Source: a virus
Length of the DNA: 44,758 bases
Virus record (IMG/VR): IMGVR_UViG_3300020183_000003
Coordinates: 1 to 44,758 of that record
Direction: 5' to 3' (one strand)
Within the stretch, counting starts at the first letter, position 1, and each line of letters opens with the position of its first letter. The notes under the pieces are model-generated. The model saw only the letters and a list, made by a program, of their open reading frames with translations, was not told the DNA's origin and did not search any database. The position numbers and the translations under genes are program-made. This document shows, piece by piece, positions 14,115 through 43,956 of the stretch.

Positions 14115-14196
14115 AAAAAAAAAGGCACTTAATTTTCGGTTACCCGACTTTTAAGTGCCTCTTTGCGGTGAGCCTTTGCCTCCGCATTTAGTTAGC
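14115..14196 (-). promoter_or_regulatory. Late leader RNA element, copy 1 (tail fibre)
   Basis: Reading leftward: GCTAAC (14196-14191), TAAAT, hairpin GCGG-A-GGC-AAAG-GCT-CA-CCGC, AAAGA, then a terminator hairpin GGCACTTAA...TTAAGTGCC (14159-14124) and nine T residues. It shares order and sequence with five other copies. Its terminator loop CGGGTAACCG is nearly that of copy 4 (CGGGAAACCG). Confidence 0.8.
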
Positions 14197-14321
14197 TTTA
14201 TTTTGACTATCAATAGTCTATACTAATAGAGTAAAAATTTCAATTTTTTAACTTAAAAATATCCATTTTTGGGTAGCGCGTTTAATCCATCCTTGAAAGA
14301 TCTTCTACCGATACTCATTGA

Positions 14322-14606
14322 TTAGTAAGAAGCATTTTGGCCCTGAGCAACAACAATTTTTATGTTCCCCTCCGCCGAGATAGCCATGATTTTGTTTGTA
14401 GGGGCCTCCTGTGGTGAATAACTGCCACCGGGTCTAATCTCAAACCCATCATTAGCACTTGCGTTCGAATCAAATTTGAAATATAGGGTCGAAGATCCTC
14501 TGTTTTGAATTAAAAGAGATGTCCTCTTTGGATCGTTATCCACAAGCATTACATTTTCAGAATCTCCCACAGTATATTCTTTTTGGTCATCAAATTTAGC
14601 TGACAT
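14322..14606 (-). CDS. Small virion-associated protein
   Basis: 94 aa, beta-rich (SLLIQNRGSSTLYFKFDSNAS, then FEIRPGGSYSP and IKIVVAQGQNASY). This pattern is common in short proteins near phage fibres and capsids that form small beta-sandwiches. It overlaps the M15 peptidase gene by 11 bp and uses the GGAG inside it. Precise role unknown. Confidence 0.7.
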   Translation of the reverse strand: MSAKFDDQKEYTVGDSENVMLVDNDPKRTSLLIQNRGSSTLYFKFDSNASANDGFEIRPGGSYSPQEAPTNKIMAISAEGNIKIVVAQGQNASY

Positions 14607-15066
14607 TTTTCATGTCTCCTTTCTTAGGTGAATAAAACGGTATTAAAAGTAATCCCTCTTTCAGAGTCCACTCGCAGGATAAGTGCGTCCAACCATTTGT
14701 ACCTTCTTCCATTGCTGTAACACCAAGAGGTTTGTAAACGGCCTCGTAATTTTTTTTCACATCATCTTGGAACTCCTTTGAAGAAACACCATCAATTTTA
14801 AGATCTTCGGCTAATCCAAGTTTGTGTCGACTAAAAAAAGACCCTTCTTTACAGTTTGGTGGCCGATAGCCTGAGTAGTTATATTTTGTGCCCCCAAAAA
14901 TCCAGTCATTGATTGTCACTTTTTTACCAAATCGATCCCTCACCCCTTGCGCAATAATGGGCAGCTTTGGGCTCAAAAACTTAACGGATGTGTACCCAAA
15001 GCTAGCATAAATTTCCTTTGGCACAAATTCTTCGAGTAAAAAACTAGGCGCTGATTCCAACTGCAT
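14596..15066 (-). CDS. M15-type peptidase (endolysin candidate)
   Basis: 156 aa. Zinc-ligand pattern of M15/VanY-like DD-peptidases: H81 and D88 in SRHKLGLAEDLKI and H128 in GWTHLSC, preceded by SGYRPPNC near residue 65. These enzymes cleave peptide bonds of peptidoglycan. Encoded between two fibre genes with the membrane-protein cluster downstream, so it is probably the lysis enzyme; a virion-bound murein hydrolase is the alternative. No signal peptide is visible, so release would need a holin. Confidence 0.8.
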   Translation of the reverse strand: MQLESAPSFLLEEFVPKEIYASFGYTSVKFLSPKLPIIAQGVRDRFGKKVTINDWIFGGTKYNYSGYRPPNCKEGSFFSRHKLGLAEDLKIDGVSSKEFQDDVKKNYEAVYKPLGVTAMEEGTNGWTHLSCEWTLKEGLLLIPFYSPKKGDMKNVS

Positions 15067-15110
15067 AAAATTCCTTTCTTAAGACCTTACTCTCATTATT
15101 TTTGTACTTT

Positions 15111-15827
15111 CTAAACATAAAACAGAATGACAAATCCGCGATTGAAAGACGTTGAGTCGTAGCTTGAATTGGCATACTCCCCCCCGGAAAGTCTTTCGAG
15201 ATAAACATGTGTTGAGTCCCAATATTCCGCGCCCCCAAGATTCGCTTTGTTTGCTGAATAGTAAAGTGGTGTGTAAACCATGTTATCATCACGGCGCACC
15301 ACTGCCTGTACCGCTCGTATGTTGACATGATTCAGTCCGTGCGGAAATGAAACGGTGGCCGTTGTGAACATGTTCCATTCACCAATCGGTTCAAATTTAA
15401 CTTTAAAGGGGAGATTTAAAAGGGATCGAACGGCTTCATAATCAGCAGCGCCGAGAAGTGAAAAAACATTTGCAGATGACGCCAATTCCTCAAAATTACC
15501 GACCCCAGCACTAGATCTTCCAAGTAGTTTGTATTGTTCACTTGCGTCGACAAACTTTGCTAGGGTAACAGAATTGTCTTGAAGTTGGTTTGTTGATATT
15601 GAATTATCGCCAAGCAGATAGTCTGTTGCGTCTTCAAGATATTTAAACCATTGTGAAGCCATTTTATGGAGCCAGTTAAAAATTTGCATAGAGGGTTTTT
15701 CTGGAATGCCCCCTAACTTTTCCCACCCACTGTTTTTTTTGCCAGTAGAAGGTTCGATGATTTGATCATCGCCAGTTGCTGTTTTTGCGAATTCGTATTT
15801 TGTTGTTGGTTTTATGGGTGCGGGCAT
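15111..15827 (-). CDS. Tail fibre / receptor-binding protein 2
   Basis: 238 aa. The N-terminus (MPAPIKPTTKYEFAKTATGDDQIIEP) is typical of short fibres attached to the baseplate. An aromatic helix (SMQIFNWLHKMASQWFKYLED) follows, then a shaft, then the ~95-residue tip shared with the long fibre (EWNMFTTATVSFPHGLNH to GFVILFYV). Located straight after the DUF2612 baseplate gene, so it is the proximal fibre. The tip duplication between 12449-14017 and this gene is visible at both DNA and protein level. Confidence 0.85.
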   Translation of the reverse strand: MPAPIKPTTKYEFAKTATGDDQIIEPSTGKKNSGWEKLGGIPEKPSMQIFNWLHKMASQWFKYLEDATDYLLGDNSISTNQLQDNSVTLAKFVDASEQYKLLGRSSAGVGNFEELASSANVFSLLGAADYEAVRSLLNLPFKVKFEPIGEWNMFTTATVSFPHGLNHVNIRAVQAVVRRDDNMVYTPLYYSANKANLGGAEYWDSTHVYLERLSGGEYANSSYDSTSFNRGFVILFYV

Positions 15828-15836
15828 GACTTTCTC

Positions 15837-16421
15837 CTAAATTATGTCGGCAAGATTGCCGCCTATTTCTAAATCTGAATAATCTCCAAACCCCATCCCG
15901 TTTGATTGTGGATCACTTTCAAATACAAAAGGTGTGGAATTGGTTATTGAAAGAAGTGGAAACGCGACCCCTGCTGGCTTCGCTGATTTGATCGCTTTTC
16001 TTATTTCAGAAACAGAACCAATAGGATCAGCGTTAATGGCAATCATTTGAAGTTCGGCTGGATATACTTCTCCATACTGAACCGAGTCACATCCGGTTAA
16101 GATTTTGAAAATTTGGATAACATCTTCCTGCGTGCCTTCTGATATGTGCTCAGATATTTTTGATCCAAGCTTAATTCGATATGTCGAATCCTCCACACCG
16201 TTTCTTTTTAAGTTTAAAATTGTTCCGAGATTGTCGAGTTGAATGCCCTCAGAATTAACCAAATTTCTGTTGCTGAGCATCGGAAATAGAATGTTTTCAA
16301 TTTCTTGAATTTTGGAAGCGTAAACGTTTAAAATTCCCGAGATATTTTTTTTGTCTCGATATTGTGTGATGAGCCGATTAAACGCATCTGTTGCGTGTGT
16401 GTTTATTTGAGTTATGCTCAT
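15837..16421 (-). CDS. Baseplate protein, DUF2612-like
   Basis: 194 aa. Contains the family's helical N-terminus and the core EGIQLDNLGTILNLKRNGVEDSTYRIKL, where the GvQLDxiGxIxxxxR pattern is diagnostic. It overlaps the baseplate J gene by 4 bp (ATGA). In related phages this protein connects the J-like wedge to the fibres, the role P2 gpI plays. Confidence 0.85.
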   Translation of the reverse strand: MSITQINTHATDAFNRLITQYRDKKNISGILNVYASKIQEIENILFPMLSNRNLVNSEGIQLDNLGTILNLKRNGVEDSTYRIKLGSKISEHISEGTQEDVIQIFKILTGCDSVQYGEVYPAELQMIAINADPIGSVSEIRKAIKSAKPAGVAFPLLSITNSTPFVFESDPQSNGMGFGDYSDLEIGGNLADII

Positions 16422-17902
16422 GTGCTACTCACGGTGATTCTGGAGCTATCAAAAACCGCTATTTCTGTAACAGAAACGGGAATGTTGTCAGATTCTGTTG
16501 GTGATGCTGAAGTCCCGATCAAAATTTCAAGGCCAATGACGCCAGGAACAGTGTTTACGGGGGTGTAAAGCCGATTAACAATTACATCTTGTCCAATTTT
16601 AAAGCCCTGTACAAAATCAATGATGGCATCTTTTATTTGTTGATCGCCGTTTTCTGGATAGATTTCCCCCTCGTTTTCATCAGAATTGGCTACAACATTT
16701 ACCACCATGTAAATGTTCAGAGAATTTGGCCTTGAAAACTTTATGGTTTGCGTAAGACCTTGAGAATCCACCACATCCTGTGAAATATCGCCATAGGCCT
16801 CTATTCCGGCTGGTTTTGAATCCCAAATGGCCTTTGCGATGTTCGCGCTTGAGCCACCAAGGACGTATGCCTGAAACGATTTTGCGGGCCTGTCGTCTTC
16901 GTCTGGCTCATCGCCTACATTCTCAATCAGGATTGCTTGAATCACGTCCGTTACGGCTAAAATTTTGTTTTTTATGCCTTCTAAGGTTGCCGTACCGGCA
17001 CGCTGTAGTAAGTTCAATCGTCTCAATTTTAATGCGGAATCGGTTTCAACATCCCGCCCAACAGCAGCATCCAATAAGTTGGTTACCGACTCCACACCTG
17101 AGGTCGGGGTTTTGATCACTGTTAGTGATGCAGCATTCGCAACGGTTGAACCTGAGAGAGTGCAAAGAAGTGGGATGTCCACAAAAGAGGAGTAGCCTTT
17201 AGTAGTCTCTGTTACAGTCACGCTAACGGCTCCGCTGTTACTAAGCGAATTACTCGTTACGCTTAAAAGCGGCTGATCAATTTCCCCTGCACCCCCTGCA
17301 AAAGTAACAACAAAACCGCTTGAAAAAGATCCGGTTACCGTCACATCTCCAAGTCCACTTATTGCTCTAAGTGCTGTTTGAAGGGCGGCGGCATTCGCTG
17401 TATGGCTGATAGCCGAGGTTTCAATTTCATCGTATCTCAATTTAAAAGATCCGGAAGATGGTGTAGCGCTGAAGCTTATAGTCTGTACTTCGTTGATACC
17501 GGCATGAATCGTTTTATCTTCTGAGGACTCAAATATGGCTGTTTCATTTCCAGCGACCGCAGCTTGAAAACCTGCTGGTACAATCGTATTCAGATCGCCG
17601 AATACTCGTGCAGTCACACTTGATTTTGTTGCTGGTAGCCTTACCACGCCGGTAATAGACACAACGTTATCCAATGAGGTATCTGAAGCTGTGTTCGGAT
17701 ACTGAGAGTTATAAACAGATTGGGCGAGTTCCCATAGCAGACTTAAACGTTCGTCCATAATGGCCTTAATTTGGCCAAGTGGAGACGTTTCGCTAAGGTT
17801 GATGCCGTCCCCAAGGGAAGCACGCAACTCAGAATCTGTTTCTGCGCTGATATCTGTTAAACGTTTTAAGTTAAAACCAGTTTCTGTAACTCCGTAGCCC
17901 AT
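16418..17902 (-). CDS. Baseplate J-like wedge protein
   Basis: 494 aa, Baseplate_J family. N-terminus MGYGVTETGFNLKRLTDI, conserved SPLGQIKAIMDERLSLLWELAQ, and a C-terminal domain with FKIGQDVIVNRLYTPVNTVPGV. Around residues 150-235 lies an inserted beta-domain (SGSFKLRYDEIETSAISHTANAA..LQTAL...VTVTGSF). This type of Ig-like/sugar-binding insertion is common in phage structural proteins. Its ribosome site GAGGA lies directly behind leader element copy 2. Confidence 0.92.
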   Translation of the reverse strand: MGYGVTETGFNLKRLTDISAETDSELRASLGDGINLSETSPLGQIKAIMDERLSLLWELAQSVYNSQYPNTASDTSLDNVVSITGVVRLPATKSSVTARVFGDLNTIVPAGFQAAVAGNETAIFESSEDKTIHAGINEVQTISFSATPSSGSFKLRYDEIETSAISHTANAAALQTALRAISGLGDVTVTGSFSSGFVVTFAGGAGEIDQPLLSVTSNSLSNSGAVSVTVTETTKGYSSFVDIPLLCTLSGSTVANAASLTVIKTPTSGVESVTNLLDAAVGRDVETDSALKLRRLNLLQRAGTATLEGIKNKILAVTDVIQAILIENVGDEPDEDDRPAKSFQAYVLGGSSANIAKAIWDSKPAGIEAYGDISQDVVDSQGLTQTIKFSRPNSLNIYMVVNVVANSDENEGEIYPENGDQQIKDAIIDFVQGFKIGQDVIVNRLYTPVNTVPGVIGLEILIGTSASPTESDNIPVSVTEIAVFDSSRITVSST

Positions 17903-17919
17903 TTAATCCTCGTTTAGGC

Positions 17920-17991
17920 AAAAAAAAAGCGAGCCATTCTTTTTAGAACGACTCGCCTCTGTTGTTGGTTTTTTTGCCAGTGTCAGTCAGC
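17920..17991 (-). promoter_or_regulatory. Late leader RNA element, copy 2 (baseplate J)
   Basis: GCTGAC (17991-17986), a degenerate small hairpin TGG...CCA, then CAGAGGCG and a terminator GCGAG...CTCGC with nine T residues. A TAAAAT box is at 17999-18004 and TATAAT further upstream. It is the most diverged copy, but keeps order, spacing and the position just before the ribosome site. Confidence 0.7.
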
Positions 17992-18104
17992 GACAAATAT
18001 TTTAGCCAAATTATAACACATGACAAATTCCTACCAAAACATCTACTATGAATTCACCGAAAAAGAACCTCGCTCTTATTGAGCGCTATCAAGAGGGTAA
18101 TGTA

Positions 18105-19091
18105 ATGGCCACAGCAGAACAATTAAAATCGTTGATTCGATCCCACTTTGGAGATGATCCAGAGAGGTTTTTCACTCTTGCTCTTCAGGTGGCCGCGCAT
18201 GAAGCACAACAAGGGCATGGTGCATTGGCCCATGATATACGCGACATTATTGACAAGGCTAGAAGAGAAAAAAGCCCAAAGTTACTTAAATTTCCTAAGG
18301 AATTGCAAGGACTAGTTCTTCTAGAGAAGCCCGAAATTCCAAAAGCCTCTCTTGTTGCTCCAACGGGTCTCATAGGCCGGATTGAAAGGATCATCTATGA
18401 GCATCGACAAGGGGGTAAGTTAAAAAGTCATGGTCTTTCTCCGAGACGAAAGATTTTATTGGTTGGGCCTCCAGGAACTGGCAAAACGATGACTACAAGG
18501 GTTTTGGGACACGAACTGGGTTTGAATTTTTATACGGTTCAGGTAGATAAGCTAGTCACAAAGTTTATGGGTGAAACAAGCGCAAAACTACGGCAGATAT
18601 TTGACTTAATTCAGGAGGAGCCTGGAATTTATTTTTTTGATGAATTTGATGCTATTGGTGGCGAAAGAACTCTCGAAAATGATATTGGGGAAATGCGAAG
18701 AGTCTTAAATTCATTTCTTCAATTTATTGAGCAGGATTCATCAGACAGCATCATTGTTGCCGCAACCAATAGCCCGAAACTCTTAGATCGAGCACTTTTT
18801 CGTCGTTTTGATGATTTATTGTATTACGAGTTGCCACAAGAAATGGATAGAAGGCGACTGATGGAAAATCTGCTGGCAGCGTTTCTTCCAAACAGGTTTG
18901 TCTGGAAAGATGTTCTTGCTAAAAGCGAGGGCCTTAGCCACGCTGAAATTGACAACGCTTGTAGAGATGCAATTAAAGAAACTGTTCTTGCAGATAAGAA
19001 GGAAATTAATACTCAAGTAATCTTGAAAATGTTGGATGAGCGACAGAGCATACATCGCGAGCTGAATTTGAGTTTGAAGAAGTTGTTCTAA
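18105..19091 (+). CDS. AAA+ ATPase (accessory, moron-like)
   Basis: 328 aa from ATG 18105, chosen for the GAGGG 8 nt upstream; an ATG at 18048 is also in frame. An N-terminal helical domain (MATAEQLKSLIRSHFGDDPERF) is followed by a classic AAA+ module: Walker A LVGPPGTGKT (about 119-128), pore-type FMGET, Walker B IYFFDEFDAI, sensor VAATNSPKLLDRALFRRFD with the arginine finger. Such ATPases are often paired with a subtilase; no protease is present here. It is the only gene on the plus strand among baseplate genes and separates gp25 from J. A TATAAC box precedes it. The role could be host takeover or defence against rival phages (inference). Confidence 0.85.
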   Translation: MATAEQLKSLIRSHFGDDPERFFTLALQVAAHEAQQGHGALAHDIRDIIDKARREKSPKLLKFPKELQGLVLLEKPEIPKASLVAPTGLIGRIERIIYEHRQGGKLKSHGLSPRRKILLVGPPGTGKTMTTRVLGHELGLNFYTVQVDKLVTKFMGETSAKLRQIFDLIQEEPGIYFFDEFDAIGGERTLENDIGEMRRVLNSFLQFIEQDSSDSIIVAATNSPKLLDRALFRRFDDLLYYELPQEMDRRRLMENLLAAFLPNRFVWKDVLAKSEGLSHAEIDNACRDAIKETVLADKKEINTQVILKMLDERQSIHRELNLSLKKLF

Positions 19092-19100
19092 AATTTCCGG

Positions 19101-19344: not shown

Positions 19345-19354
19345 CACTCAGTGT

Positions 19355-19387
19355 TCTCCGCCCAACGGAAGACGGAGATTTTAGTTT
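19355..19387 (+). terminator. Rightward terminator after the repeat region
   Basis: TCTCCG (19355-19360) and CGGAGA (19373-19378) form a 6-bp stem followed by TTTTAGTTT. It would end the ATPase transcript or a rightward small RNA. Confidence 0.55.
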
Positions 19388-19429
19388 AAAAAGTCTTGGC
19401 AGAGTTAGTACCTTCCAGCCAAGACTTTT
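19388..19429. terminator. Strong 12-bp hairpin, bidirectional terminator
   Basis: AAAAGTCTTGGC and GCCAAGACTTTT pair perfectly around an 18-nt loop. On the minus strand the stem ends in TTTTT; on the plus strand in TTTTG. It lies at the convergence of the ATPase cassette and the late strand, and its sequence is also the 3' end of the small peptide gene. Confidence 0.7.
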
Positions 19430-19485
19430 GTTATAGCGAGGACAAGCTCTAAAAAGAGTATTATCATCTTAATAACTTTAGCCAT
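19405..19485 (-). CDS. Hydrophobic 26-aa peptide, type I toxin candidate
   Basis: ATG 19485 (or 19491, two codons longer) encodes a lysine start (MAKVIK), a membrane-length hydrophobic run (MIILFLELVLAI) and a basic end (AGRY). Length and layout resemble TisB/DinQ/Zor-type inner-membrane toxins. The AGGTAGG ribosome site can pair with CACCTGCCTACAAA upstream, hiding the start as in type I toxin mRNAs. It has its own extended -10 promoter and its own terminator. No antisense antitoxin is identified; the repeat region just downstream is the candidate place. Confidence 0.6.
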   Translation of the reverse strand: MAKVIKMIILFLELVLAITKVLAGRY

Positions 19486-19590: not shown

Positions 19591-19947
19591 TTACGAAAGC
19601 TGAACCACTAAAGCGTCTATGTTTCCGCTTTGGGTTGTAACACCAAAATTGATAGTCATCCTTCGATTTAGGTTATCGTAGGAAAAATCAAACTTTGTAA
19701 TGTTCAAAACACCCGGCGTTTCTGTGATTGTTTTCTTGAAAATCGCTGAAATGGTATCCCGCGATACGTTTTTCTGCATGATCGTCTGAAAATAAGGGAC
19801 TCCTTTGCTTTGATCCAGAAACCATTCTCCATAAAAAAGTTGCAATCTTTGCTTTAAGAGCTGCCGTATTTCTTCCACACCAGTAACCATGCTGACAACA
19901 TTGTTGGTGAGATCTATGTCGTGATCGTCGTTTAGTTTTATGTCCAT
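19591..19947 (-). CDS. gp25/W-like baseplate wedge protein
   Basis: 118 aa with the GPW_gp25 hallmarks: MDIKLNDDHDIDL start, EEIRQLLKQRLQLFYGEWFLD core, then a C-terminal beta region. These proteins sit at the sheath-baseplate junction and are sheath-like initiators of contraction. It is normally followed directly by baseplate J; here ~1.7 kb of accessory DNA intervenes. Confidence 0.92.
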   Translation of the reverse strand: MDIKLNDDHDIDLTNNVVSMVTGVEEIRQLLKQRLQLFYGEWFLDQSKGVPYFQTIMQKNVSRDTISAIFKKTITETPGVLNITKFDFSYDNLNRRMTINFGVTTQSGNIDALVVQLS

Positions 19948-21639: not shown

Positions 21640-21959
21640 AAAGTGCTTTCCTCGTAAAGGAGTACAACTCTATCGCCAAAGTCTGTGTCGTCAGGGTCTT
21701 TATCTTTTCCTTGTGTGTCGTGAACGAGGAATGTCCCTTTTGGCAAATTTAGGTGTGGATATTGAAAGCTTAGATGCACGTTTGTTTGCAACAAAAGCCC
21801 GGAAAGAATAGGTTTACGGTCTAAATTCAAAATATTCATAACCCACAAGCTAAGGCGTTTATTGAATAAAAATTGCAACACATAAAATTGATTGTCGAGT
21901 GAAACGGTCTCCTCAAATGATCGAAGCCTTCTGTTAATTGGAATTTGAATAATGCTCAT
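21636..21959 (-). CDS. Baseplate plug protein, Pam3 gp18-like
   Basis: 107 aa: MSIIQIPINRRLRSFEETVSLD, then FNKRLSLWVMNILN and a conserved end GDRVVLLYEE. The pattern RlsLWxxxIxxxdxxpIlsG and GDRVxLxY matches the small plug family described from the cyanophage Pam3 baseplate (DUF6983). It probably closes the central channel beside the hub. Confidence 0.8.
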   Translation of the reverse strand: MSIIQIPINRRLRSFEETVSLDNQFYVLQFLFNKRLSLWVMNILNLDRKPILSGLLLQTNVHLSFQYPHLNLPKGTFLVHDTQGKDKDPDDTDFGDRVVLLYEESTL

Positions 21960-22657
21960 TTCAAAATACCCTTAACGGACTCGGTGAGATTCATTAGAAT
22001 CGAAGATGCTTTTTTGACAGACCTCGGCTGTTCAGTACTCTTTTGCCCAAGATCAACTGTTGGAGTAGCTGTATGTTTTATGCTTTCAACGGCGTTTTTT
22101 GCCTGTACACTCACTTGGGATGTGTGCGCGATTTTGATTTGTTCCATGGTGGCGGTAAAAGATAAGGTGTTCTTTGTTTTTGATGTTTCAATAATCGAAA
22201 TATTTGTGAACAAAACATTTTCGTAATTTGTAATCCCAGCAACAATTGAAAATGGGATTCTGTTTTCAAAAGTATCTTTTAAAAAAGTATAGGCTTTTTG
22301 AACTTTGTCTTTAGGTTGCAACAGCAACCCGCTGATCGATCCGGATAGTGCCGCCAGTGCCGGATCATTGCTTACTATTTGCTGAAAGCCCGCAATAATC
22401 GCTGTGGAATAGGCAACACTTAAAAAGGTTGTTGGCGAATCTGATATTCGTCCCTCGATCGTTATTTTTGGATTTTCCAGGTTGACATGATTGGTAAAAA
22501 TACTTCCATCTTCGACTGGCGAGGATGTAACCGTAGCGCTTTTTTCATGCATTATTTGTGAAGTGACATCTATTTCCAATATTTCCAAATTACCCTCCCT
22601 AGAGTAGGCGATAATTTGCACTTTTTTAGCGGGTTTCAGTAAGTCTAAATTGGCCAT
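21956..22657 (-). CDS. Dit-like tail/baseplate protein
   Basis: 233 aa. Residues 1-100 look like a Dit-type N-terminal domain (SSPVEDGSIFTNHVNLENPKITIEGRIS). Residues 125-185 form a second beta region (FENRIPFSIVAGITNYENVLFTNISIIE). It lies downstream of the tape measure in gene order and upstream of plug and hub, as for distal tail proteins. Its ribosome site GAGGT follows directly after leader copy 3. Confidence 0.8.
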   Translation of the reverse strand: MANLDLLKPAKKVQIIAYSREGNLEILEIDVTSQIMHEKSATVTSSPVEDGSIFTNHVNLENPKITIEGRISDSPTTFLSVAYSTAIIAGFQQIVSNDPALAALSGSISGLLLQPKDKVQKAYTFLKDTFENRIPFSIVAGITNYENVLFTNISIIETSKTKNTLSFTATMEQIKIAHTSQVSVQAKNAVESIKHTATPTVDLGQKSTEQPRSVKKASSILMNLTESVKGILK

Positions 22658-22667: not shown

Positions 22668-22746
22668 AAAAAAAAGAGGCGGGCAATACGTTAAGTACAC
22701 CCGCCTCCGTTGTGTGATTGGCTTACGCCTCCACTAATTGGTCAGC
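22668..22746 (-). promoter_or_regulatory. Late leader RNA element, copy 3 (Dit-baseplate block)
   Basis: GCTGAC (22746-22741), CAATTA, hairpin GTGG-A-GGC-GTAA-GCC-AA-TCAC with a GNRA loop, then CGGAGGCGGG...CCCGCC terminator and T-run. TAAAAT at 22758-22763 lies 11 bp upstream of GCTGAC. The hairpin arm GGAGGCG could pair with the terminator's CGCCTCT instead, giving an antiterminator. Confidence 0.8.
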
Positions 22747-22783
22747 TTGATGCTACAATTTTACCATAAAGGAAGGTGCTTCA

Positions 22784-23572
22784 ATGAATAAAGTTTTTAT
22801 TGCCATTTTACTGCAATTGGTTATTGTGAACTCTGTTTTTTGCTCAATTGAATCAAAGAAAATGTTGGGTAATAATGCGAATGGTGATTTGGTCACACTT
22901 ACACCATCTTCAGATCCCAAGGAATTAAGATGGAACGCTGTTCGTTCCTTAAAATACGCTGGGCTATCAGACATTCAAATTGAAAGTCTGTTTTCTGAGC
23001 TAGATAAAAAAATGAATAAAGACAACATCCCAAATTATTTTTCATTTGAAAAATTGGAGGAGTCACTGAAAATTGGCAAATTTATAGCATACGGACTAAC
23101 TTTCGAAGACTTTGTTGCTTGTGAAGATTTAAATGCGAGTATGCCATGGGAAAAAAAATTATGTAATAAAGAGCAAGTTTATCGGTGTAAAGTCCTAGGC
23201 GCGCCATTAGATAAGATTGTTGGGTATGAATATACCTCAGATAGGATTGAGGATGATGAAAAAGTTGTTGATTATTATTACTGTGGCCATTTGTTGATAG
23301 ATAGATGGTCTAGCATTTCGATATTGGTTAGCTGCCTTTCCCAAATGGGATATCAAAAACAACAAATAAAGGCTGTTTTGAATAGGGAATTCGAAGAGAA
23401 AAACAAGTCAGTAAGGTTCTTTCTTGAGAGTAATAAATATATTCCTTACAAAAGGGTTTTAGAAATATTGAGAAAAGAAGGCTATAAAATAGAAATAGTT
23501 CAAGGCAAAATCGAAAGTGTTTTTAAGGATGAGGATGAATACGATAGGTTTAGAGGCGACAGCCGATTATAG
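22784..23572 (+). CDS. Secreted/periplasmic protein of unknown function (moron-like)
   Basis: 262 aa with an N-terminal signal peptide ([20 protein letters not shown]); the lipobox is imperfect, so probably not a lipoprotein. The mature part is acidic/polar, with cysteines (ACEDL, KKLCNK, YRCKV, YYCGH) that may form disulfides in the periplasm. AAGGAAGGTG precedes the ATG. It is on the opposite strand to the late genes. Such cargo genes may alter the lysogen's envelope or exclude other phages; no family recognised. Confidence 0.75.
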
Positions 23573-23580: not shown

Positions 23581-23668
23581 GGAGAGATGGCAGAGCGGTT
23601 TAATGCGGCGGTCTTGAAAACCGTTGAACCGAAAGGTTCCGTGGGTTCAAATCCTACTCTCTCCGCCA
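23581..23668 (+). tRNA. tRNA-Ser (UGA)
   Basis: Complete cloverleaf with acceptor arms GGAGAGA and TCTCTCC, discriminator G and encoded CCA (23666-23668). The anticodon loop CTTGAAA gives UGA. A long type II variable arm (GAACCGAAAGGTTCC) is diagnostic of tRNA-Ser. It starts 9 bp after the secreted-protein stop. It may supplement UCA decoding during late expression, or be a remnant of transfer from a host. Confidence 0.96.
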
Positions 23669-24886: not shown

Positions 24887-25378
24887 TTATTCAGCGCTTT
24901 CTGGTAATTGCAAAGGGATTTTTTTGAGCGCATCAAAAATCATGTCCATAAGCTCGTCTTTGTGTCGAAGTTCTTTTTTGGCCTTTTTTTCTAGGGCTTG
25001 GATGTGATCATGAAACACTTTTTTTATTGGATTTGGTAGGTAGTATCCGTGTTTTCTTATGGAAGGCAAAACTTCAGTTGTTACCCACTTTCTGAAGTTT
25101 TGGGCTTCCTTTTTTCTACTTAGAAAAACTAAAATGTAAAGTCCCGGCTCGTTTACAATATAGCTTTGTTGCTTTCTTCCCACAGAATCGATGACTTCAG
25201 TACTACTTAAGTCATCTCTGTCTAACCGCTTAAGTGTTTCGCTGATATTTTTTAGTCCGAGCGCCTTGCAAATATCGCTAGCAACAAACCAGGGAAGGTT
25301 GTCTTTTTCGACAACACGAATGTTACCAAACTTTGTGCTCTCAAAAACTGTTAATGATGTATTCAAGATTTTCATCAC
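24887..25378 (-). CDS. BRO-N domain antirepressor
   Basis: 163 aa. Residues 8-110 carry the BRO-N pattern: GNIRVVEKDNLPWFVASDICKALGL, then VNEPGLYILVFLSRKKEAQNFRKWV, then VLPSIRKHGYY. The C-terminus is a lysine-rich helix. BRO/Ant proteins bind repressors or DNA and promote phage induction. Placed between the switch cassette and the tape measure, it is probably part of the same regulatory import rather than of tail assembly. Confidence 0.9.
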   Translation of the reverse strand: MMKILNTSLTVFESTKFGNIRVVEKDNLPWFVASDICKALGLKNISETLKRLDRDDLSSTEVIDSVGRKQQSYIVNEPGLYILVFLSRKKEAQNFRKWVTTEVLPSIRKHGYYLPNPIKKVFHDHIQALEKKAKKELRHKDELMDMIFDALKKIPLQLPESAE

Positions 25379-35073: not shown

Positions 35074-35156
35074 AAAAAAAAAGGCGTTCAACTTTTCGGT
35101 TTCCCGATGGTTGAACGCCTCTTTATGGTTGGCTTGCGCCTCCGTTTTTAGTTAGC
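35074..35156 (-). promoter_or_regulatory. Late leader RNA element, copy 4 (protease-capsid block)
   Basis: GCTAAC (35156-35151), TAAAAA, hairpin GG-A-GGC-GCAA-GCC-AA-CC with a GNRA loop, then AAAGA, terminator GGCGTTCAAC...GTTGAACGCC and nine T residues. TAAAAT (35185-35190) with TTGAAA 18 bp further up forms a promoter that overlaps the end of the 59-aa gene. Best-preserved copy with copy 3. Confidence 0.85.
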
Positions 35157-35187
35157 GTGGTTTAAATTTTCAAAGACACTCTAGATT

Positions 35188-35367
35188 TTAGCGCACCAAC
35201 TGCGCACTTTTCAACTTTGGCAACAAAACCTTGGTTACTTTACCCCGCAAAGGAACAATATCAATTTTCTGTGGATGCTCTGTAATCACAATTTCCAAAC
35301 GACAATACTGTTCATCACGAATCTGTTTAAGCCCCTCTACAATTAGCTGAAGATGATCCTCTCTCAT
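35188..35367 (-). CDS. Small 59-aa protein inside the head cluster
   Basis: ATG 35367 behind GAGGG; encodes MREDHLQLIVEGLKQIRDEQ, then a beta-like middle (RLEIVITEHPQKIDIVPL) and a basic end (KVTKVLLPKLKSAQLVR). Stop TAA overlaps the TAAAAT box of leader copy 4. The upstream par-type operator (35393-35434) suggests that it is expressed in the plasmid state rather than as a head gene. No family recognised. Confidence 0.65.
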   Translation of the reverse strand: MREDHLQLIVEGLKQIRDEQYCRLEIVITEHPQKIDIVPLRGKVTKVLLPKLKSAQLVR

Positions 35368-36322: not shown

Positions 36323-36325
36323 ACG

Positions 36326-37687
36326 CTACTCCTCAACTTCGTCTTCATCGTCCGATTCGGGGTCATTTTCGATAATTGGTTTTAATCTCTCGCAATTGAT
36401 CCTTGTCTCCATCGAATACTCTTGACCGCCAAACCTGGCCATCGCAATTTCTTCTGGCATTGCGACTTGCATCTCAACATAAATCTTGTCAGTTTCAGCA
36501 ACGGATTTACGAACATCCGCTTTTTCCTTTTCATCCATCTCTTTAAGAGGGTAAAAGTGAAATGATATGTCCTTAGAAAAATGGCCATTTGTAGGACCAT
36601 CTTGTGCCGCTAAAACAAGCTCAAGCAATCTACTAATGGCTGGCTCAAGCACTTCTGATTGCTCTGCCGAAACATAATCTGTCCAGTCGTCGTCTTCTGA
36701 TTTTCCGGTTGCGCCAAGCCCACTTGGAGCTTCCCCAAAAAGGACTGTGTGTGGCATGTTTGCTGCACCTGCAAGACGAACGTTTATTTTCTCGATTACT
36801 TTGTCGATATTTTGAAAGGATGTTTGGAGTAGAGTTAGCTCATCCTCTGCATCAATCACATCCGTTTTAAGTGTTGACCGAATAAGATCCTGGAGCTCCA
36901 TTCTTCTCTTAATGGTATCCTCTCCACCACTGCCGATCATTTCTGCTAAACCCTTAATTTTTAAAATTCTTTGGTAGAACTCCATGATCATTGTAGCCAT
37001 ACTGTCGTGGGCTTGAGAAAAATTGATGATGGCATTCCAAAGCCCGGACATAACAGAATCGTGCCAGTAATTGTTTAGAATGAATAGGTTCATAGGAAGC
37101 TCAGATCCGTCAAAACGAATTAGTCTGCTAGCATGAACATTAACCCCTGTGAAATTTCCGTTTCTTCCATAAATTGTATAGGTTCGTGGAAGATTAAACA
37201 GCGGGCTTTCAAGACGCGATTCAATGTCAGAGACATTGGCAACGAGCTCATAACGATTTAAAACGACAAGCGACTTAATACCTCTAATTTTGGACTCAAT
37301 AACTGGCTGATCTGAATTTAAGCCATCGTCTAAATGAACATAAACTGCGGCCCCACCATAAACACGTGCTGTGGTCCATGCATTTGAAAAGTATTTTTTA
37401 ACCCTAAGTTTCTTAAAATATTCTGAAACTGCTATTTTATGTGCGTTGTTTATTGCTGAAAACTGAATCCACTTTCTTGTCGCATCCTTGACCACTTTGG
37501 TGACGATCTTCCGCGCCTCTGGACTTGCTGCAAAAAGGTTTTCTGCTTCCCAATGCGTAAGTCGTACAGCGTTTGCCTTAACGCTCACACGTTTATCTCT
37601 GCCTCGTTGGCCGAGTCCCGTTACAAAATTTTCAAGGCCATCATTTCTTTGAATCGCGGACTGTATGATCGTTGCCTTTTGTGACAT
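36326..37687 (-). CDS. Portal protein, DUF1073-like
   Basis: 453 aa. FVTGLGQRGRDKRVSVKANAVRL, then a long alpha/beta core with RVYGGAAVYVHLDDG and HASRLIRFDGSELP, and the late signature GEAPSGLGATGKSEDDDWTDYV, which is characteristic of DUF1073 portals. Between terminase and MuF as expected. GGAGG ribosome site immediately after leader copy 5. Confidence 0.93.
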   Translation of the reverse strand: MSQKATIIQSAIQRNDGLENFVTGLGQRGRDKRVSVKANAVRLTHWEAENLFAASPEARKIVTKVVKDATRKWIQFSAINNAHKIAVSEYFKKLRVKKYFSNAWTTARVYGGAAVYVHLDDGLNSDQPVIESKIRGIKSLVVLNRYELVANVSDIESRLESPLFNLPRTYTIYGRNGNFTGVNVHASRLIRFDGSELPMNLFILNNYWHDSVMSGLWNAIINFSQAHDSMATMIMEFYQRILKIKGLAEMIGSGGEDTIKRRMELQDLIRSTLKTDVIDAEDELTLLQTSFQNIDKVIEKINVRLAGAANMPHTVLFGEAPSGLGATGKSEDDDWTDYVSAEQSEVLEPAISRLLELVLAAQDGPTNGHFSKDISFHFYPLKEMDEKEKADVRKSVAETDKIYVEMQVAMPEEIAMARFGGQEYSMETRINCERLKPIIENDPESDDEDEVEE

Positions 37688-37704: not shown

Positions 37705-37776
37705 AAAAAAGGCGAGCTCTCCGTTCTGGAAAACTCGCCTCTTTTAGGTCACGCTTACGCGTTCCTGTTAGTTAGC
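37705..37776 (-). promoter_or_regulatory. Late leader RNA element, copy 5 (portal)
   Basis: GCTAAC (37776-37771), TAAC, hairpin AGG-A-ACGC-GTAA-GCGT-GA-CCT with a GNRA loop, AAAAGA, terminator GGCGAG...CTCGCC and six T residues. TAAAAT at 37792-37797, 15 bp upstream. The stem differs from copies 3 and 4 (ACGC/GCGT instead of GGC/GCC) but still pairs: compensatory change. Confidence 0.8.
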
Positions 37777-37814
37777 GTTTATTTATCTTAGATTTTATCA
37801 TAGCAAAAAAACTA

Positions 37815-39705: not shown

Positions 39706-39956
39706 AAATCATCAAGCTCACTTTTTTTTATTTTGACAACTTCGGACAACGTTGATTGTAAAATTTTTTTGCAGTGGTCCAGCTGACGAGCATTAACAGT
39801 TACGCTAACAGTTAATACGGCTGCGGAAAGCCAATAAACAGCCTTTAAATAGGCGTCTGCCCCAAAGGTACGGGCATTACCTATCCACACTACCGCTGCA
39901 CATAAATCAAGAAAACAGAGCACTGATGGGAATAGCCATGTCGGAATCTTATGCAT
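39702..39956 (-). CDS. Small two-TM membrane protein
   Basis: 84 aa with two membrane segments (WLFPSVLCFLDLCAAVVWI and LKAVYWLSAAVLTVSVTV) and a helical cytosolic tail (HCKKILQSTLSEVVKIKKSE). Overlaps the small terminase by ATGA. Size suits a holin or a superinfection-immunity protein; the location before terminase is unusual for a holin. Confidence 0.7.
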   Translation of the reverse strand: MHKIPTWLFPSVLCFLDLCAAVVWIGNARTFGADAYLKAVYWLSAAVLTVSVTVNARQLDHCKKILQSTLSEVVKIKKSELDDL

Positions 39957-39994
39957 CCTAAAAACTCCTTAAATCACGAGGTGGGCAGCACTTT

Positions 39995-40975: not shown

Positions 40976-40978
40976 GCT

Positions 40979-41497
40979 TTATGGCCTAAAAATTCCGTAA
41001 TAACCCTGCCGATTTGATGCATTAAAAGCAATTGGCGAAAATCCGCAATGGAAACACTCCCAGGCATATAAAATACGCCCAATACGGCCATTCCCATCCC
41101 AAAACGGGTGAATCATTTCAAATTCGCGATGCCGTTTTAAGGCATCTATTTGAGAAAATTTGTCTTGAAATTTTTTATTTGAAAAACTTTTGTCAGAATG
41201 TGGTCTTAAAAAATCGTCCATCAAGTTCTGAATTGTAATGGGTAATGGCGCTTTTCTTCCGCCAATAAACACATTTCCCGATCTAAAAACGCCAAGCTCT
41301 TCTTTTTTTAAGTGCCCTGTCATCAAAATACGGTGACACTCTAGTATGCTTGAAACATTAAGCAACTGTTCATGCCACAAAAATGACCAGGCCTCAAGTG
41401 CATTTATACGAGAATTACGGTCTTTGACACCCTCTATTTCGTTTGAGTGCTGTAAAAAATCTTCCATGAATAGATAAAGCATGAGTCTGTCCAACAT
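40979..41497 (-). CDS. Fic-domain protein with N-terminal inhibitory motif
   Basis: 172 aa. Complete Fic signature HPFWDGNGRIGR (130-141), flap-like GVFRSGNVFIGG (69-80), and an SxxxEG inhibitory helix SNEIEG (18-23), the class II arrangement in which a glutamate blocks productive ATP binding. Such enzymes usually transfer AMP to target proteins. Located between a methyltransferase and DUF1064. The C-terminus is short after the active site. Target unknown. Confidence 0.92.
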   Translation of the reverse strand: MLDRLMLYLFMEDFLQHSNEIEGVKDRNSRINALEAWSFLWHEQLLNVSSILECHRILMTGHLKKEELGVFRSGNVFIGGRKAPLPITIQNLMDDFLRPHSDKSFSNKKFQDKFSQIDALKRHREFEMIHPFWDGNGRIGRILYAWECFHCGFSPIAFNASNRQGYYGIFRP

Positions 41498-41913
41498 TAA
41501 GCTCTAATCTCCTCAAAAATAATGTCTGGAAACTTTGCCTTAAAAAGCTTTCTTTTTGTGATAGCTACCTGAGTCCACATACCCTTTTTTTCACGCACAA
41601 CCCATGACCTTTTACTGATTGAATAGTAAAAAAAGTCAGCCACATAAATGATAGGCTTTTCACTTTTTGTGCCTTCTTGCAAAACAAACGGCTCCTGCAA
41701 CCTTAGTTCACGCACATCTGGGTCGATTTTTATGAACTGAAACTCCATCATTTCGGACAAAGAATCAAACTTTATTTTTTGCGCTCTTCCCCGCCAAACA
41801 CCTACCCAAACGGGCTTTTTATTCCGATATTTTGTCTGTTTTTCGGAATTTTTCTTAATTAGCTCTTCATACCCCCCCATTTTACGAACATCTGATGCGT
41901 TAATAATCATCAT
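41497..41913 (-). CDS. DUF1064 protein (nuclease-like)
   Basis: 138 aa. Core KYRNKKPVWVG, FDSLSEMMEFQFI, ELRLQEPFVLQEG, PIIYVADFFYYS and WVVREKKG...TKRKLFKAKFPD match DUF1064, whose members resemble Holliday-junction or restriction-type nucleases (D...ExK core: VADFFYY and VREKKG). Probably acts in DNA recombination or packaging-substrate processing. Confidence 0.85.
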   Translation of the reverse strand: MMIINASDVRKMGGYEELIKKNSEKQTKYRNKKPVWVGVWRGRAQKIKFDSLSEMMEFQFIKIDPDVRELRLQEPFVLQEGTKSEKPIIYVADFFYYSISKRSWVVREKKGMWTQVAITKRKLFKAKFPDIIFEEIRA

Positions 41914-42238
41914 AATTTTTTCTCTTTTTAAAGTGGGTTAATTCAATAAATTTACCATCGTCATTTTTATAATCCATGTTGTGTATTTCAAGAAGCTTAT
42001 CAGCAAAGAGATACTGAAAATAATTCTCGCCTGTTTCCTTGTTTTGAAGACGAAAAATGAAATCAAACTTTTGGTGTTCCACAATCTCTTTTCCATTTAT
42101 TTTTTTGAGATTTTGAACTGTGTTTTTTAACGATGCGTTTTGTGATTTTAGGGTATAAATCTCAATAAATTGAAGCCACGCCAAAAAGGCTGCGGATACC
42201 AAAATCAAAACTGTTAAATATATGGCTGTGAAAATCAC
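41900..42238 (-). CDS. Small membrane-anchored coiled-coil protein
   Basis: 112 aa. N-terminal membrane segment (AIYLTVLILVSAAFLAWL), then a coiled coil (LKSQNASLKNTVQNLKK) and a polar C-terminus. The start overlaps the upstream methylase stop (ATGA); its 3' end overlaps DUF1064. Layout recalls inner-membrane spanin subunits but context is not lysis; unknown. Confidence 0.65.
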   Translation of the reverse strand: MIFTAIYLTVLILVSAAFLAWLQFIEIYTLKSQNASLKNTVQNLKKINGKEIVEHQKFDFIFRLQNKETGENYFQYLFADKLLEIHNMDYKNDDGKFIELTHFKKRKNYDDY

Positions 42239-43536
42239 TTTTTTTCTGCCTCAACTAAGCCATACTTTGTAAAATCAGTGATCGTCTCCCCATTTCTCTT
42301 AACCGTCGGCTGAATATTGTTCTTTTTGCAATAATCGACATACCGCAAAACAATGGCATCACAATAGCGTTCATCAAGCTCAATAGTTCTACAGACACGT
42401 TTGTGTTTTTGGCAGGCAATTAACGTGGTTCCGGACCCTGCAAATGGGTCATAGACCGTATCCCCGCGTTCAGTGTTGTTCAAAATAGGAATCTCCATAC
42501 ACTTAAGCGGTTTCTGTGTACCGTGACCATAGGTTTCCTCTTTGTCCGAGTTTCCAAAGCTGTTGTTATTTTTTATCTGCCAGGTTGTTGCCTGATCCCT
42601 TCTTCCTTGCCAGTTGTGCTTTTCACCTTTTTTGACTGCATACCAGCAAGGTTCATGCTGCCAATGGTAGTCTCCACGACTCATTGCAAAGTGTTGTTTT
42701 ACCCAGATTATTTGGCTTATGATTTCAAAGCCACAATCGATCAAATTTTGCGCGATGGTATAAGTAAGGCGTCCCGCATGCCAAACATACGCTACATTTC
42801 CTTTAAAAAGGCTATATGCCTCAGACCAATCAACTTTATCGTCATTCTTTACTTTTCCATTTGATCTCTTGTCAAACACTATACCAAATTCTTCCCGCCA
42901 TTCTGGATCATACTCCACACCATACGGAGGATCTGTGACCATGAGGAGTGGATTATCACTCCCCATCAACTTATCAACATCAGTTGAGACAGTGCTATCC
43001 CCACAGAAAAGACGATGCTCACCCAATTCATACAAATCTCCTCTGACTGTTTCTGAGGATTTTAACGCCAGTGGGTCTGGAATATCGTCCTCACCTTCGG
43101 ATTCTCCGCCTTCAGAGTCATCGAGCTTAAAATCAACCTCTTCAAATCCCCAGTCAAGAAGTTCAGGGATCTCAAACTCAGCTTGAAGAATCTCCCAATC
43201 CCATTCACCCGTGTTCTTGTTGAGACGGATGTTTAACTCTCGCTCTTTATCCAGAATCAAATCCAGATAAATAACTGGAACCTCAGATTCCCCCATAGCC
43301 CCCCAAACCTTTACGCGTTGATGCCCACCGATAATGACGTTTTCACGATCTTTATTTTTGTTCACAATAATGGGGTCAACAAACCCAAATTCCGTTAGGG
43401 ATTTTTGGATATCCTCGTGTTGTTTTTCAGAAAGTTTCCGAGGATTGTATTCTGCAAATTTTAGATCACTAATTTTAACCCAAACATGCTCTTTGATTCT
43501 ATTTTTTTGTGTTTCTTTTTGCTTTTTCATACCCAC
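42235..43536 (-). CDS. ParB-nuclease-like domain fused to DNA methyltransferase
   Basis: 433 aa. Residues 18-110 form a ParB/Srx-type domain (VKISDLKFAEYNPRKLSEKQ, VIIGGHQRVKVWGAMG). The methyltransferase follows: motif IV TDPPYGVEYD near 200 (DPPY, favouring N6-adenine) and motif I YDPFAGSGTTLIA near 372, beta-class order. This fusion is common in phages, where it modifies phage DNA. An acidic linker (DSEGGESEGEDD) joins the domains. Overlaps the zinc-finger gene by 38 bp. Confidence 0.92.
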   Translation of the reverse strand: MGMKKQKETQKNRIKEHVWVKISDLKFAEYNPRKLSEKQHEDIQKSLTEFGFVDPIIVNKNKDRENVIIGGHQRVKVWGAMGESEVPVIYLDLILDKERELNIRLNKNTGEWDWEILQAEFEIPELLDWGFEEVDFKLDDSEGGESEGEDDIPDPLALKSSETVRGDLYELGEHRLFCGDSTVSTDVDKLMGSDNPLLMVTDPPYGVEYDPEWREEFGIVFDKRSNGKVKNDDKVDWSEAYSLFKGNVAYVWHAGRLTYTIAQNLIDCGFEIISQIIWVKQHFAMSRGDYHWQHEPCWYAVKKGEKHNWQGRRDQATTWQIKNNNSFGNSDKEETYGHGTQKPLKCMEIPILNNTERGDTVYDPFAGSGTTLIACQKHKRVCRTIELDERYCDAIVLRYVDYCKKNNIQPTVKRNGETITDFTKYGLVEAEKK

Positions 43537-43681
43537 TCCAATCGTTTATCGTTTTGCAAGCCCCCCCACAACTTTTACAGGCGTGTTCGTATTGATTGTT
43601 TTTCAACACAAACGGTGGCGTTCTTTTTACCAATCCAAAACAGCATGCAGAAACGAGTCCTAAAGAAAACTTTTCTTTCAA
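43499..43681 (-). CDS. Small Com-like zinc-finger protein 2 (TTG start)
   Basis: 60 aa with CKSCGGACK near residue 35 and an earlier CC pair. TTG 43681 follows AGGAGG at 6 nt and lies right after the previous stop. Together with the gene at 43684 it precedes a DNA modification gene, like Mu com before mom, where the zinc protein activates translation of the modifier. This parallel is an inference. Confidence 0.65.
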   Translation of the reverse strand: MKEKFSLGLVSACCFGLVKRTPPFVLKNNQYEHACKSCGGACKTINDWSGYEKAKRNTKK

Positions 43682-43683
43682 AG

Positions 43684-43863
43684 CTAACCTCCTCTAAACT
43701 CTTTGGGACGCCAAAATGGTTTAGACTTCACATCGACAAACCTAAAACAGCGTTTACAAAAAAACAAAATCACTCCAAAAAAACTAAAAAATTTAGGTGG
43801 TAATCCACAACATTTGCAAACAGGGGCATGAATCGCGCATCGGCTTATAATCTTTGAGCTCAT
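43684..43863 (-). CDS. Small zinc-ribbon protein 1
   Basis: 59 aa from ATG 43863 (MSSKIISRCAIHAPVCKCCG...), behind AAGGCGG. Ligand pattern CKCC and CKRC about 18 residues apart, a treble-clef or ribbon. An in-frame ATG at 43995 would read through leader copy 6, so it is rejected. First gene after that leader; cysteine content suggests RNA or DNA binding. Confidence 0.7.
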   Translation of the reverse strand: MSSKIISRCAIHAPVCKCCGLPPKFFSFFGVILFFCKRCFRFVDVKSKPFWRPKEFRGG

Positions 43864-43879
43864 TGAAACCGCCTTAAAG

Positions 43880-43956
43880 AAAAAAAGGCGAGTCGGTGCA
43901 ATTTCTGCACTAACTCGCCTCCTGCTGGTTTGTCTTTTGACTTCCGTTTGGTCAGC
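43880..43956 (-). promoter_or_regulatory. Late leader RNA element, copy 6 (zinc-finger/methylase block)
   Basis: GCTGAC (43956-43951), CAAAC, hairpin GG-AA-GTC-AAAA-GAC-AAA-CC, CAGGA, terminator GGCGAGT...ACTCGCC with an inner GTGCA/TGCAC stem, and a T-run. TAAAAT at 43973-43978. Most upstream copy in the late strand. Confidence 0.78.

What the first reader, a model, noticed from the sequence alone, without database searches (positions are those of the whole stretch)
14115..43956. One leader RNA element repeated six times, each ahead of a late gene block
Seen: at 14115-14196, 17920-17991, 22668-22746, 35074-35156, 37705-37776 and 43880-43956 the minus strand carries GCTRAC(Y), a small hairpin with GNRA- or AAAA-type loop closed by GG...CC, then GAGGC-type terminator hairpin plus T-run. 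Five of the six end within ~20 nt of the ribosome binding site of a gene that opens a module (zinc-finger/methylase, portal, protease-capsid, Dit-baseplate, baseplate J); in copy 1 a 26-codon leader frame lies between it and the tail fibre. Stem bases change with preserved pairing (GGC/GCC versus ACGC/GCGT versus GTC/GAC). Known: riboswitches, put/nut RNAs and attenuators act by terminator read-through. Inference: a phage-encoded or host-sensed signal opens all six terminators together, giving co-ordinated late expression without a single late promoter. I do not recognise it as any riboswitch class.
Basis: partly seen in the sequence, partly recalled or inferred. Interest (0 to 1): 0.92.

Follow-up and report, generated by a model that had tools for sequence, protein, structure and literature searches.

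The report
Repeated late-gene leader RNA in phages
A virus, probably of a little-known uncultured bacterial group, carries the same small leader RNA, each with a stop signal and most with a promoter of their own, ahead of six blocks of late genes, and distant relatives keep it in the same places, which suggests an unrecognised way of turning on virus assembly genes together.

Summary
All six minus-strand copies are at the stated places; the strict pattern occurs 6 times on minus, 0 on plus, and 0.003 times per dinucleotide shuffle. I count 13 further copies in prophages of three genomes of the uncultured phylum Margulisbacteria (models recover most), all ahead of late phage genes, 12 of them in modules that carry one in the window (portal, DUF2213, Dit, baseplate J, ParB-methylase), with proteins about 35-59% identical. 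Five of six hairpin pairs show two-sided changes. The typical unit is: extended -10 promoter, GCTRACYRA box, small hairpin, strong intrinsic terminator, RBS, gene. I find no conserved antiterminator pairing and no Rfam match at a leader, so a ligand-switched attenuator is unlikely. Best explanation: a put/nut-like antitermination leader repeated at the late operons and opened by a trans-acting factor, probably phage-encoded. The RNA family and its syntenic conservation are shown; read-through control is inferred; the factor was not found. New variant of a known kind: antitermination, here spread over many late operons with an unlisted RNA element.

The parts
14115..14196 (-). Leader copy c1: box GCTAACTAA 14196-14188, hairpin 14186-14164, terminator 14161-14115; ahead of a 26-codon frame and the tail fibre gene 12449-14017 (fibre by eye)
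17920..17991 (-). Leader copy c2: box 17991-17983, degenerate hairpin, terminator 17959-17920; ahead of baseplate J 16418-17902
18010..18020 (-). Extended -10 TGTGTTATAAT of c2
22668..22746 (-). Leader copy c3: box 22746-22738, hairpin 22734-22714, terminator 22707-22668; ahead of Dit gene 21956-22657
22758..22768 (-). Extended -10 TATGGTAAAAT of c3
35074..35156 (-). Leader copy c4: box 35156-35148, hairpin 35143-35127, terminator 35121-35074; ahead of the DUF2213 gene (ATG at 35058, end 33910)
35185..35195 (-). -10-like TGCGCTAAAAT of c4 (not significant alone)
37705..37776 (-). Leader copy c5: box 37776-37768, hairpin 37766-37746, terminator 37741-37705; ahead of portal gene 36326-37687
37792..37802 (-). 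Extended -10 TATGATAAAAT of c5
43880..43956 (-). Leader copy c6: box 43956-43948, hairpin 43945-43927 (only with the box held open), terminator 43921-43880; ahead of a 59-aa CxxC ORF (43684-43863) and the ParB_N-N6_N4_Mtase gene 42235-43536
43973..43983 (-). -10-like AGTGTTAAAAT of c6 (not significant alone)
19388..19434 (-). Separate terminator (T-run from 19392, -16.7 kcal/mol) after the last gene of the Dit module (19591-19947); c2's terminator is therefore not needed to end that module
   Evidence: (limits approximate)

Best explanation
Late operons carry a transcription-control unit of their own. An extended -10 promoter starts a transcript an estimated 3-20 nt before a single-stranded box GCTRACYRA, followed by a small hairpin with an internal loop or bulge and then, usually 35-39 nt after the start of the box, by a strong intrinsic terminator that ends just before the ribosome binding site. 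Unmodified RNA polymerase would release a short leader RNA. When a trans-acting factor, most likely phage-encoded and made late, binds box plus hairpin on the nascent RNA (or lets it bind the polymerase), the polymerase becomes termination-resistant and the operon is expressed. Because the operons share the element, one factor could open them together. Shown: RNA family, structure, promoter-like signal, terminator, synteny, confinement of secure copies to prophages. Inferred: promoter activity, read-through control, processivity. Unknown: the factor.
For: Six copies against 0.003 expected. Three-copy model R1 recovers c5, both G001 Dit leaders, the G027 baseplate-J and sheath leaders, both G001 portal leaders and c6 at E 5e-4 to 0.3, above the first false match at 0.67, in loci chosen beforehand. 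R2 (10 copies) finds in a genome scan two leaders not known before, both ahead of baseplate J in G001 (E 3e-5 and 5.7e-4). Copies occupy the same positions ahead of portal, DUF2213, Dit, baseplate J and ParB-methylase in three other host genomes at about 35-59% protein identity. Covariation: 5 of 6 pairs with two-sided changes (shuffles 2.2, 10 of 500 reach it), 13 such cells (2.7, 0 of 500), score 0.495 (0.202, 0 of 500; slid structures at most 0.060); RNAalifold predicts the same six pairs. Extended -10: 0 of 3000 shuffles reach the sum over 16 leaders. No antiterminator pairing. In the window the terminator lies 12-30 nt before the start codon, downstream of the promoter-like sequence, so expression needs read-through unless a promoter hides in that gap. 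At c2 and c3 the upstream neighbour is divergent (18048-19091 +, 22784-23572 +), so the terminator has no adjacent operon to end. G001's baseplate-J leaders have a second hairpin with a short T-run before the gene (by eye), which fits processive rather than local antitermination.
Against: No regulator was identified. c2, G027 Dit and the G002 ParB copy lack a stable small hairpin; G027 Dit also lacks a T-run; the ParB copy has GCC for GCT and L275 a changed box. R1 misses c2, the three G002 copies and G027 DUF2213, and ranks G027 Dit below a false match. R2 misses G027 DUF2213 and G002 ParB at E <= 3 and, in the genome scan, all three G002 copies plus G027 DUF2213 and Dit. c1 and the ParB copy have no good -10, and only 7 of 16 are significant alone. 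Alignments A11 and A13 were fitted to the structure; the -10 consensus was chosen after seeing the sequences and its shuffles keep only single-base composition. No transcript data.
Confidence: 0.6

Rival explanations
1. Protein-free put-like RNA: the nascent box plus hairpin itself makes RNA polymerase termination-resistant, as in HK022. Regulation lies in the promoters, and the terminator only blocks polymerases that did not start at the leader.
For: HK022 putL is an RNA of about 70 nt just downstream of a promoter that acts without dedicated proteins (PMC9378689, passages). Here too the element seems to lie near the transcript's 5' end and no regulator was found.
Against: put has two stem-loops; here one small hairpin of 5-8 pairs precedes the terminator and three of 16 copies barely fold. 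Polymerases reading in from upstream would transcribe the element as well.
Confidence: 0.17
2. Feedback or antisense attenuator: a late phage protein or a small antisense RNA binds the leader and causes or relieves termination locally, for dosage control rather than late switching.
For: Antisense RNAs complementary to gene leaders are known in P1, P7, N15 and P4 (passage in PMC7567579).
Against: Outside the leaders the full complement of the box occurs at two places only, about the number expected by chance (my estimate), both merely the other strand of box matches without a leader (window only, partial complements not searched). The same element precedes genes of different function.
Confidence: 0.1
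3. Ordinary end-of-operon terminators, with promoter and box of no regulatory meaning.
For: At c1, c4, c5 and c6 the upstream gene is co-directional, so the terminator could also end it.
Against: c2 and c3 follow divergent genes, and the Dit module has its own terminator at 19392. Box, hairpin and synteny are conserved at about 35-59% protein identity. The terminator lies between the promoter-like sequence and the gene.
Confidence: 0.06
4. Ligand riboswitch or RNA-pairing attenuator sensing a host signal.
For: A compact structured leader followed by a terminator looks like one.
Against: No antiterminator pairing; no Rfam match at a leader; no secure host-gene copy in 69 genomes of the phylum.
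Confidence: 0.04
5. DNA-level Q-like system: the box is a promoter-proximal pause or loading site for a Q-type protein.
For: Q loads at a promoter-proximal pause of the late promoter and makes polymerase read the following terminator (PMC6606751, passages).
Against: The -10 to box distance varies from 10 to 28 nt in 14 of 16 leaders, while the box lies 1-4 nt from the hairpin in 12 of the 13 copies that fold. Compensatory stem changes point to RNA.
Confidence: 0.03

Closest known systems
HK022 put RNA (putL, putR)
   Same: RNA element in a phage transcript, putL just downstream of its promoter; read-through of terminators; two copies per genome (PMC9378689, passages)
   Different: put serves the early operons, has two stem-loops and needs no dedicated protein; here six copies on late operons, a conserved single-stranded box plus one small hairpin, terminator directly behind
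Lambda-type N/nut antitermination (also mEp021 Gp17 with three nut sites)
   Same: single-stranded box followed by a small hairpin; several sites served by one factor (PMC11893012, passages)
   Different: nut sites there serve early antitermination; no copy of our box was seen in 12 rRNA leaders of the phylum; loop sequence and length are not conserved; no N-like protein found, though none was specifically sought
Lambdoid Q / late promoter PR' with tR'
   Same: late promoter, leader, terminator, then late genes (PMC6606751, passages)
   Different: Q uses a DNA site embedded in the late promoter; here the element shows RNA covariation and is repeated
P2 late operons with several activated promoters (Ogr; recalled, not looked up)
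   Same: several late promoters in a myovirus switched by one factor (recall)
   Different: P2 control is at initiation (recall); here a terminator separates each promoter-like sequence from its gene
Bipartite antitermination system of Gram-positive conjugative elements
   Same: antitermination system of a mobile element (title seen in a reference list; paper not held)
   Different: its elements could not be compared

Membership tests
Rfam families (4227) | score at or above gathering | tested here: not met
   window: tRNA only; at E <= 1 no hit on a leader in the window or in L225, L227, L186, L185; L235, L269, L275 not scanned
RNA-pairing attenuator / riboswitch | alternative pairing of the leader with the terminator's 5' arm | tested here: not met
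   mean z 0.01, range -0.94 to 1.59, over 13 of the 19 leaders
N/nut | boxA like that of the host rRNA leaders | tested here: inconclusive
   12 of 20 16S loci gave a usable upstream region; 6 of 12 share CTTTGAAAA; one upstream region and three downstream regions hold GCTAAC without the rest of the box. None is from G001, G002 or G027
N/nut | boxB hairpin with a conserved loop | tested here: not met
   loops range from 3 to 6 nt and their sequence differs between phages
N/nut | arginine-rich N protein encoded | not tested
   no dedicated search; family scans named none
HK022 put | two stem-loops in about 70 nt | tested here: not met
   one small hairpin; the only other stem is the terminator
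HK022 put | antitermination without protein, through the beta' zinc-binding domain | not testable with these tools
   needs biochemistry
Q/qut | DNA site and pause at fixed distance from the promoter | tested here: inconclusive
   -10 to box 10-28 nt in 14 of 16 leaders; in the other two the best match lay at the 48-nt limit of the search; no search for QBE-like repeats
Q/qut | Q homologue encoded | tested here: inconclusive
   none named among the window proteins scanned; not all ORFs scanned
P2-like activated late promoters | upstream activator site | not tested
   not scanned

The most novel reading that the evidence does not exclude
A new class of phage RNA element that turns late expression into a distributed antitermination regulon: each late operon has its own promoter, antitermination RNA and gate terminator, and one unidentified phage factor acting on box plus hairpin opens them all. 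It would be an antitermination machinery evolved in phages of the uncultured phylum Margulisbacteria, unrelated to N, Q or put.
Probability: 0.45. Interest if true: 0.85.

Novelty: new variant of a known kind. Interest (0 to 1): 0.7.

Why it matters
The antitermination systems I could compare act at few sites per genome (two put sites, three nut sites in mEp021, a late promoter for Q) and come from well-studied hosts. A compact element repeated at six late operons, with stems exchanged by covariation and kept at the same genes in distant relatives, offers a self-contained and testable antitermination module. It would explain how a phage with several separated late operons keeps them in step, and how cargo genes can sit between late operons without disturbing them. 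The element is also a search handle for phages of this phylum: the model gave no match up to E 1 in 1.04 Mb made up almost wholly of terminase-, portal- and capsid-related viral contigs.

Tried and rejected
Viral-contig pattern scans: one search gave 6 loci of one lineage, chance matches; one search gave 7 loci (four of them one sequence), none matched by R2 up to E 1. L362 looks alike by eye (terminator, then RBS and ATG) but is a single copy ahead of a portal-like gene of another kind; left open. The genome-contig scan gave 79 loci; three (L129, L149, L178) hold prophage leaders, and no other locus reaches E 0.7 with R2; L125 and L128, listed by the filter, are not matched. The phylum pattern search hit 6 of 74 genomes: G001, G002, G027 and, once each, G031, G036 and G069, which I take as chance from their sequence; the reversed control pattern hit 7 genomes once each.

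Distant portal relatives: 27 loci; the stretch upstream of the portal match was read in 24 of these plus L013 and L014 (under 100 nt in L188 and L190), without a leader. R2 gave no match in 26 of 27 portal, 47 of 80 terminase and 3 of 3 capsid loci plus L229 and L277. DUF2213 relatives: 45 of 80 loci plus the 7; one match, L292, E 0.62, which looks like coding sequence.

Regulator hunt: the 105-aa HTH ORF 4007-4324 (sub-threshold Sigma70_r4) has three 25-29% partial matches in G001 and none in G002 or G027. The 276-aa ORF 5840-6670 has no match in 69 genomes (the tool warns that an empty answer without a positive control shows little). Blast of the window's frames against 12 prophage loci shows shared structural, packaging and methylase genes only; the early regions of those prophages were not recovered, so this does not exclude a shared regulator. 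No candidate is put forward.

Antisense RNA against the whole box: no candidate. Riboswitch: rejected. End-of-operon terminator only: rejected for c2 and c3.

Literature: ten searches. None listed a description of repeated late-operon antitermination leaders; the library is open-access papers only, two queries returned nothing, and I opened few of the papers listed. PMC9378689, PMC6606751, PMC11893012, PMC7567579 and PMC8708921 were seen as passages; no paper was read whole.

Dropped rows: of 19 leaders counted, one search used 16 (L187 and G001's baseplate-J pair L269/L275 not included; both G001 portal copies kept); one search used 16 (near-duplicates L187, one G001 portal copy and L275 left out); one search used 13 (also without G027 Dit, G002 ParB and L269); A13 has 14: near-duplicates L187, L226, L275 and also L225 not among the sources, G002 ParB not found. 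The L185 11144 row of A13 is misaligned and adds no pairs; 72 of 84 cells could be counted.
Full report
What the window is. The contig is a virus record with an exact 127-base direct repeat at its ends, so probably a circular genome of about 44.6 kb. It encodes a contractile-tail phage: portal, Mu-F, DUF2213, Dit and baseplate J by Pfam, terminase and capsid by tblastn to annotated phages, sheath and fibre by eye. It has a tyrosine integrase, ParA and DnaB: a temperate, possibly plasmid-like phage. Near-identity search of 14100-36000 found no phage record beyond a tRNA.

Checking the observation. The strict pattern gives 6 on the minus strand, 0 on the plus and a mean of 0.003 per dinucleotide shuffle. 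Single-sequence folds give the hairpin with a one-by-two internal loop in c1, c3, c4 and c5; c6 folds otherwise unless the box is held open, and c2 is degenerate. The six terminators are the six strongest on the minus strand in my scan. Rfam has no match at the leaders.

Relatives. I found no close phage relative in the collections searched. A pattern scan of genome contigs followed by a structure filter pointed to three loci, two of one Margulisbacteria genome (G001) and one of a genome in the same phylum (G002). A phylum pattern search added a third genome, G027, and three single matches elsewhere that I take as chance; the reversed control pattern hit 7 of 74 genomes once each, so single pattern matches alone carry no weight. 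Reading the DNA showed 13 further leaders: G001 has two each at portal, Dit and baseplate J; G002 has ParB-methylase, portal and DUF2213; G027 has DUF2213, sheath, Dit and baseplate J. All 13 stand ahead of late phage genes, and 12 of the 13 at modules that carry one in the window (the exception is the G027 sheath; in the window a 59-aa ORF lies between c6 and the methylase). The two G001 baseplate-J leaders have a second hairpin with a short T-run before the gene, and one of them (L275) has a changed box. Proteins are 42% (portal), 37% (Dit), 57% (capsid), 45% (DUF2213) and 59% (baseplate J) identical. From this I infer, without proof, that the window's phage infects Margulisbacteria.

Is it one RNA family? 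A model from only c1, c3 and c4 recovers c5, both G001 Dit leaders, G027 baseplate J and sheath, both G001 portal leaders and c6 at E 5e-4 to 0.3, above the first false match (0.67); it misses c2, the G002 copies and G027 DUF2213, and G027 Dit ranks below the false match. These loci were chosen because they held candidates. A model from ten copies recovers c2 and finds two unseen leaders in G001, both at baseplate J (E 3e-5 and 5.7e-4). In 69 genomes of the phylum the eight matches below E 1e-3 are prophage leaders of G001 and G027; twelve weaker ones (E 0.05-0.93, ten other genomes and G001) I take as chance, having read only some; all three G002 copies and two of G027 are missed. Related viral contigs gave nothing. 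Covariation on 14 copies: 97.2% of counted cells paired (shuffles 77.8), 5 of 6 pairs with two-sided changes (shuffles 2.2; 10 of 500 reach 5), 13 such cells (shuffles 2.7, 0 of 500), score 0.495 (shuffles 0.202, 0 of 500) against at most 0.060 for slid structures; RNAalifold predicts the same six pairs. The alignment was fitted to the structure, which leans in its favour; the slid controls and the independent folds (hairpin in 13 of 16, c6 and G027 DUF2213 only with the box held open in this form) are the counterweight.

Anatomy. Upstream of the box most leaders carry TATGNTANNAT-like extended -10 sequences; the sum over 16 leaders is reached by 0 of 3000 shuffles, and 7 of 16 are significant alone. 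The consensus was chosen by eye first, so the number is optimistic. The box follows the -10 by 10-28 nt (14 of 16; c1 and G002 ParB have none near). The hairpin follows the box by 1-4 nt in 12 of the 13 that fold, and the terminator arm GAGGC starts 28-39 nt after the start of the box, 35 or 39 in 11 of 16. In the window the RBS and start codon follow directly, with the 26-codon frame in between at c1. Expression of the gene therefore requires passing the terminator, unless a promoter hides in the short gap.

How it works. I tested whether the leader could pair with the terminator's 5' arm, as an attenuator would: mean z 0.01 over 13 leaders. The terminators are not merely ends of upstream operons: c2 and c3 follow divergent genes and the Dit module has its own terminator. 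No complement of the box is encoded elsewhere in the window beyond chance. This leaves modification of RNA polymerase or binding of a factor to the nascent leader. The conserved single-stranded box beside a hairpin whose sequence is free but whose pairing is kept resembles nut and put in logic. The box was not seen in the rRNA leaders of 12 loci of the phylum, and put differs in its two stem-loops (PMC9378689, passages). Tandem hairpins at the G001 baseplate-J leaders fit processive action. Against: no factor found, some copies decayed, and G027 Dit without a T-run.

Verdict. Real, conserved RNA family with its secure copies in phages and prophages: very likely. Control of read-through: likely. 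Processive antitermination with a phage factor: the best single reading, about 0.6 overall for the explanation as stated.

Noticed in passing
window 1-127 and 44632-44758: Exact 127-base direct terminal repeat: the contig is probably a complete circular genome of about 44.6 kb.
   Followed up: partly
window 18048-19091, 22784-23572; L235 10155-11863; L149 391-2562; L269 1-1343: Accessory genes (AAA ATPase, a 262-aa protein, AbiEi/AbiEii-like pairs; Abi names by eye, no family search) sit next to or near leaders on their upstream side, divergent in several cases: leaders may mark tolerated sites for cargo genes.
   Followed up: partly
window 43999-44361: Stand-alone response-regulator receiver domain upstream of c6.
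   Followed up: no
window 42235-43536: ParB_N fused to an N6_N4 DNA methylase, conserved in G002 at 45% identity and also behind a leader.
   Followed up: partly
window 23581-23668: tRNA-Ser (TGA) between cargo genes, 84% identical over 93 bases to a tRNA-Ser region of Phage C48C1, a Kyanoviridae record.
   Followed up: no
window 12449-14017 and 15111-15827: Two tail proteins share a closely similar C-terminal end (about 90 residues by eye), a partial duplication of the fibre tip.
   Followed up: no
L235 9958-10080: The Dit leader of G027 keeps its box but has no T-run: a decayed or bypassed gate next to an Abi-like pair.
   Followed up: partly
L362 3990-4068: Single GCTAACTGA ... GAGGCGAG terminator, RBS, ATG ahead of another kind of portal-like gene in a viral contig; not matched by the model.
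   Followed up: partly
window 40979-41497 and 24887-25378: Fic/DOC-domain protein within the late block and a BRO-N protein upstream of the Dit module.
   Followed up: no
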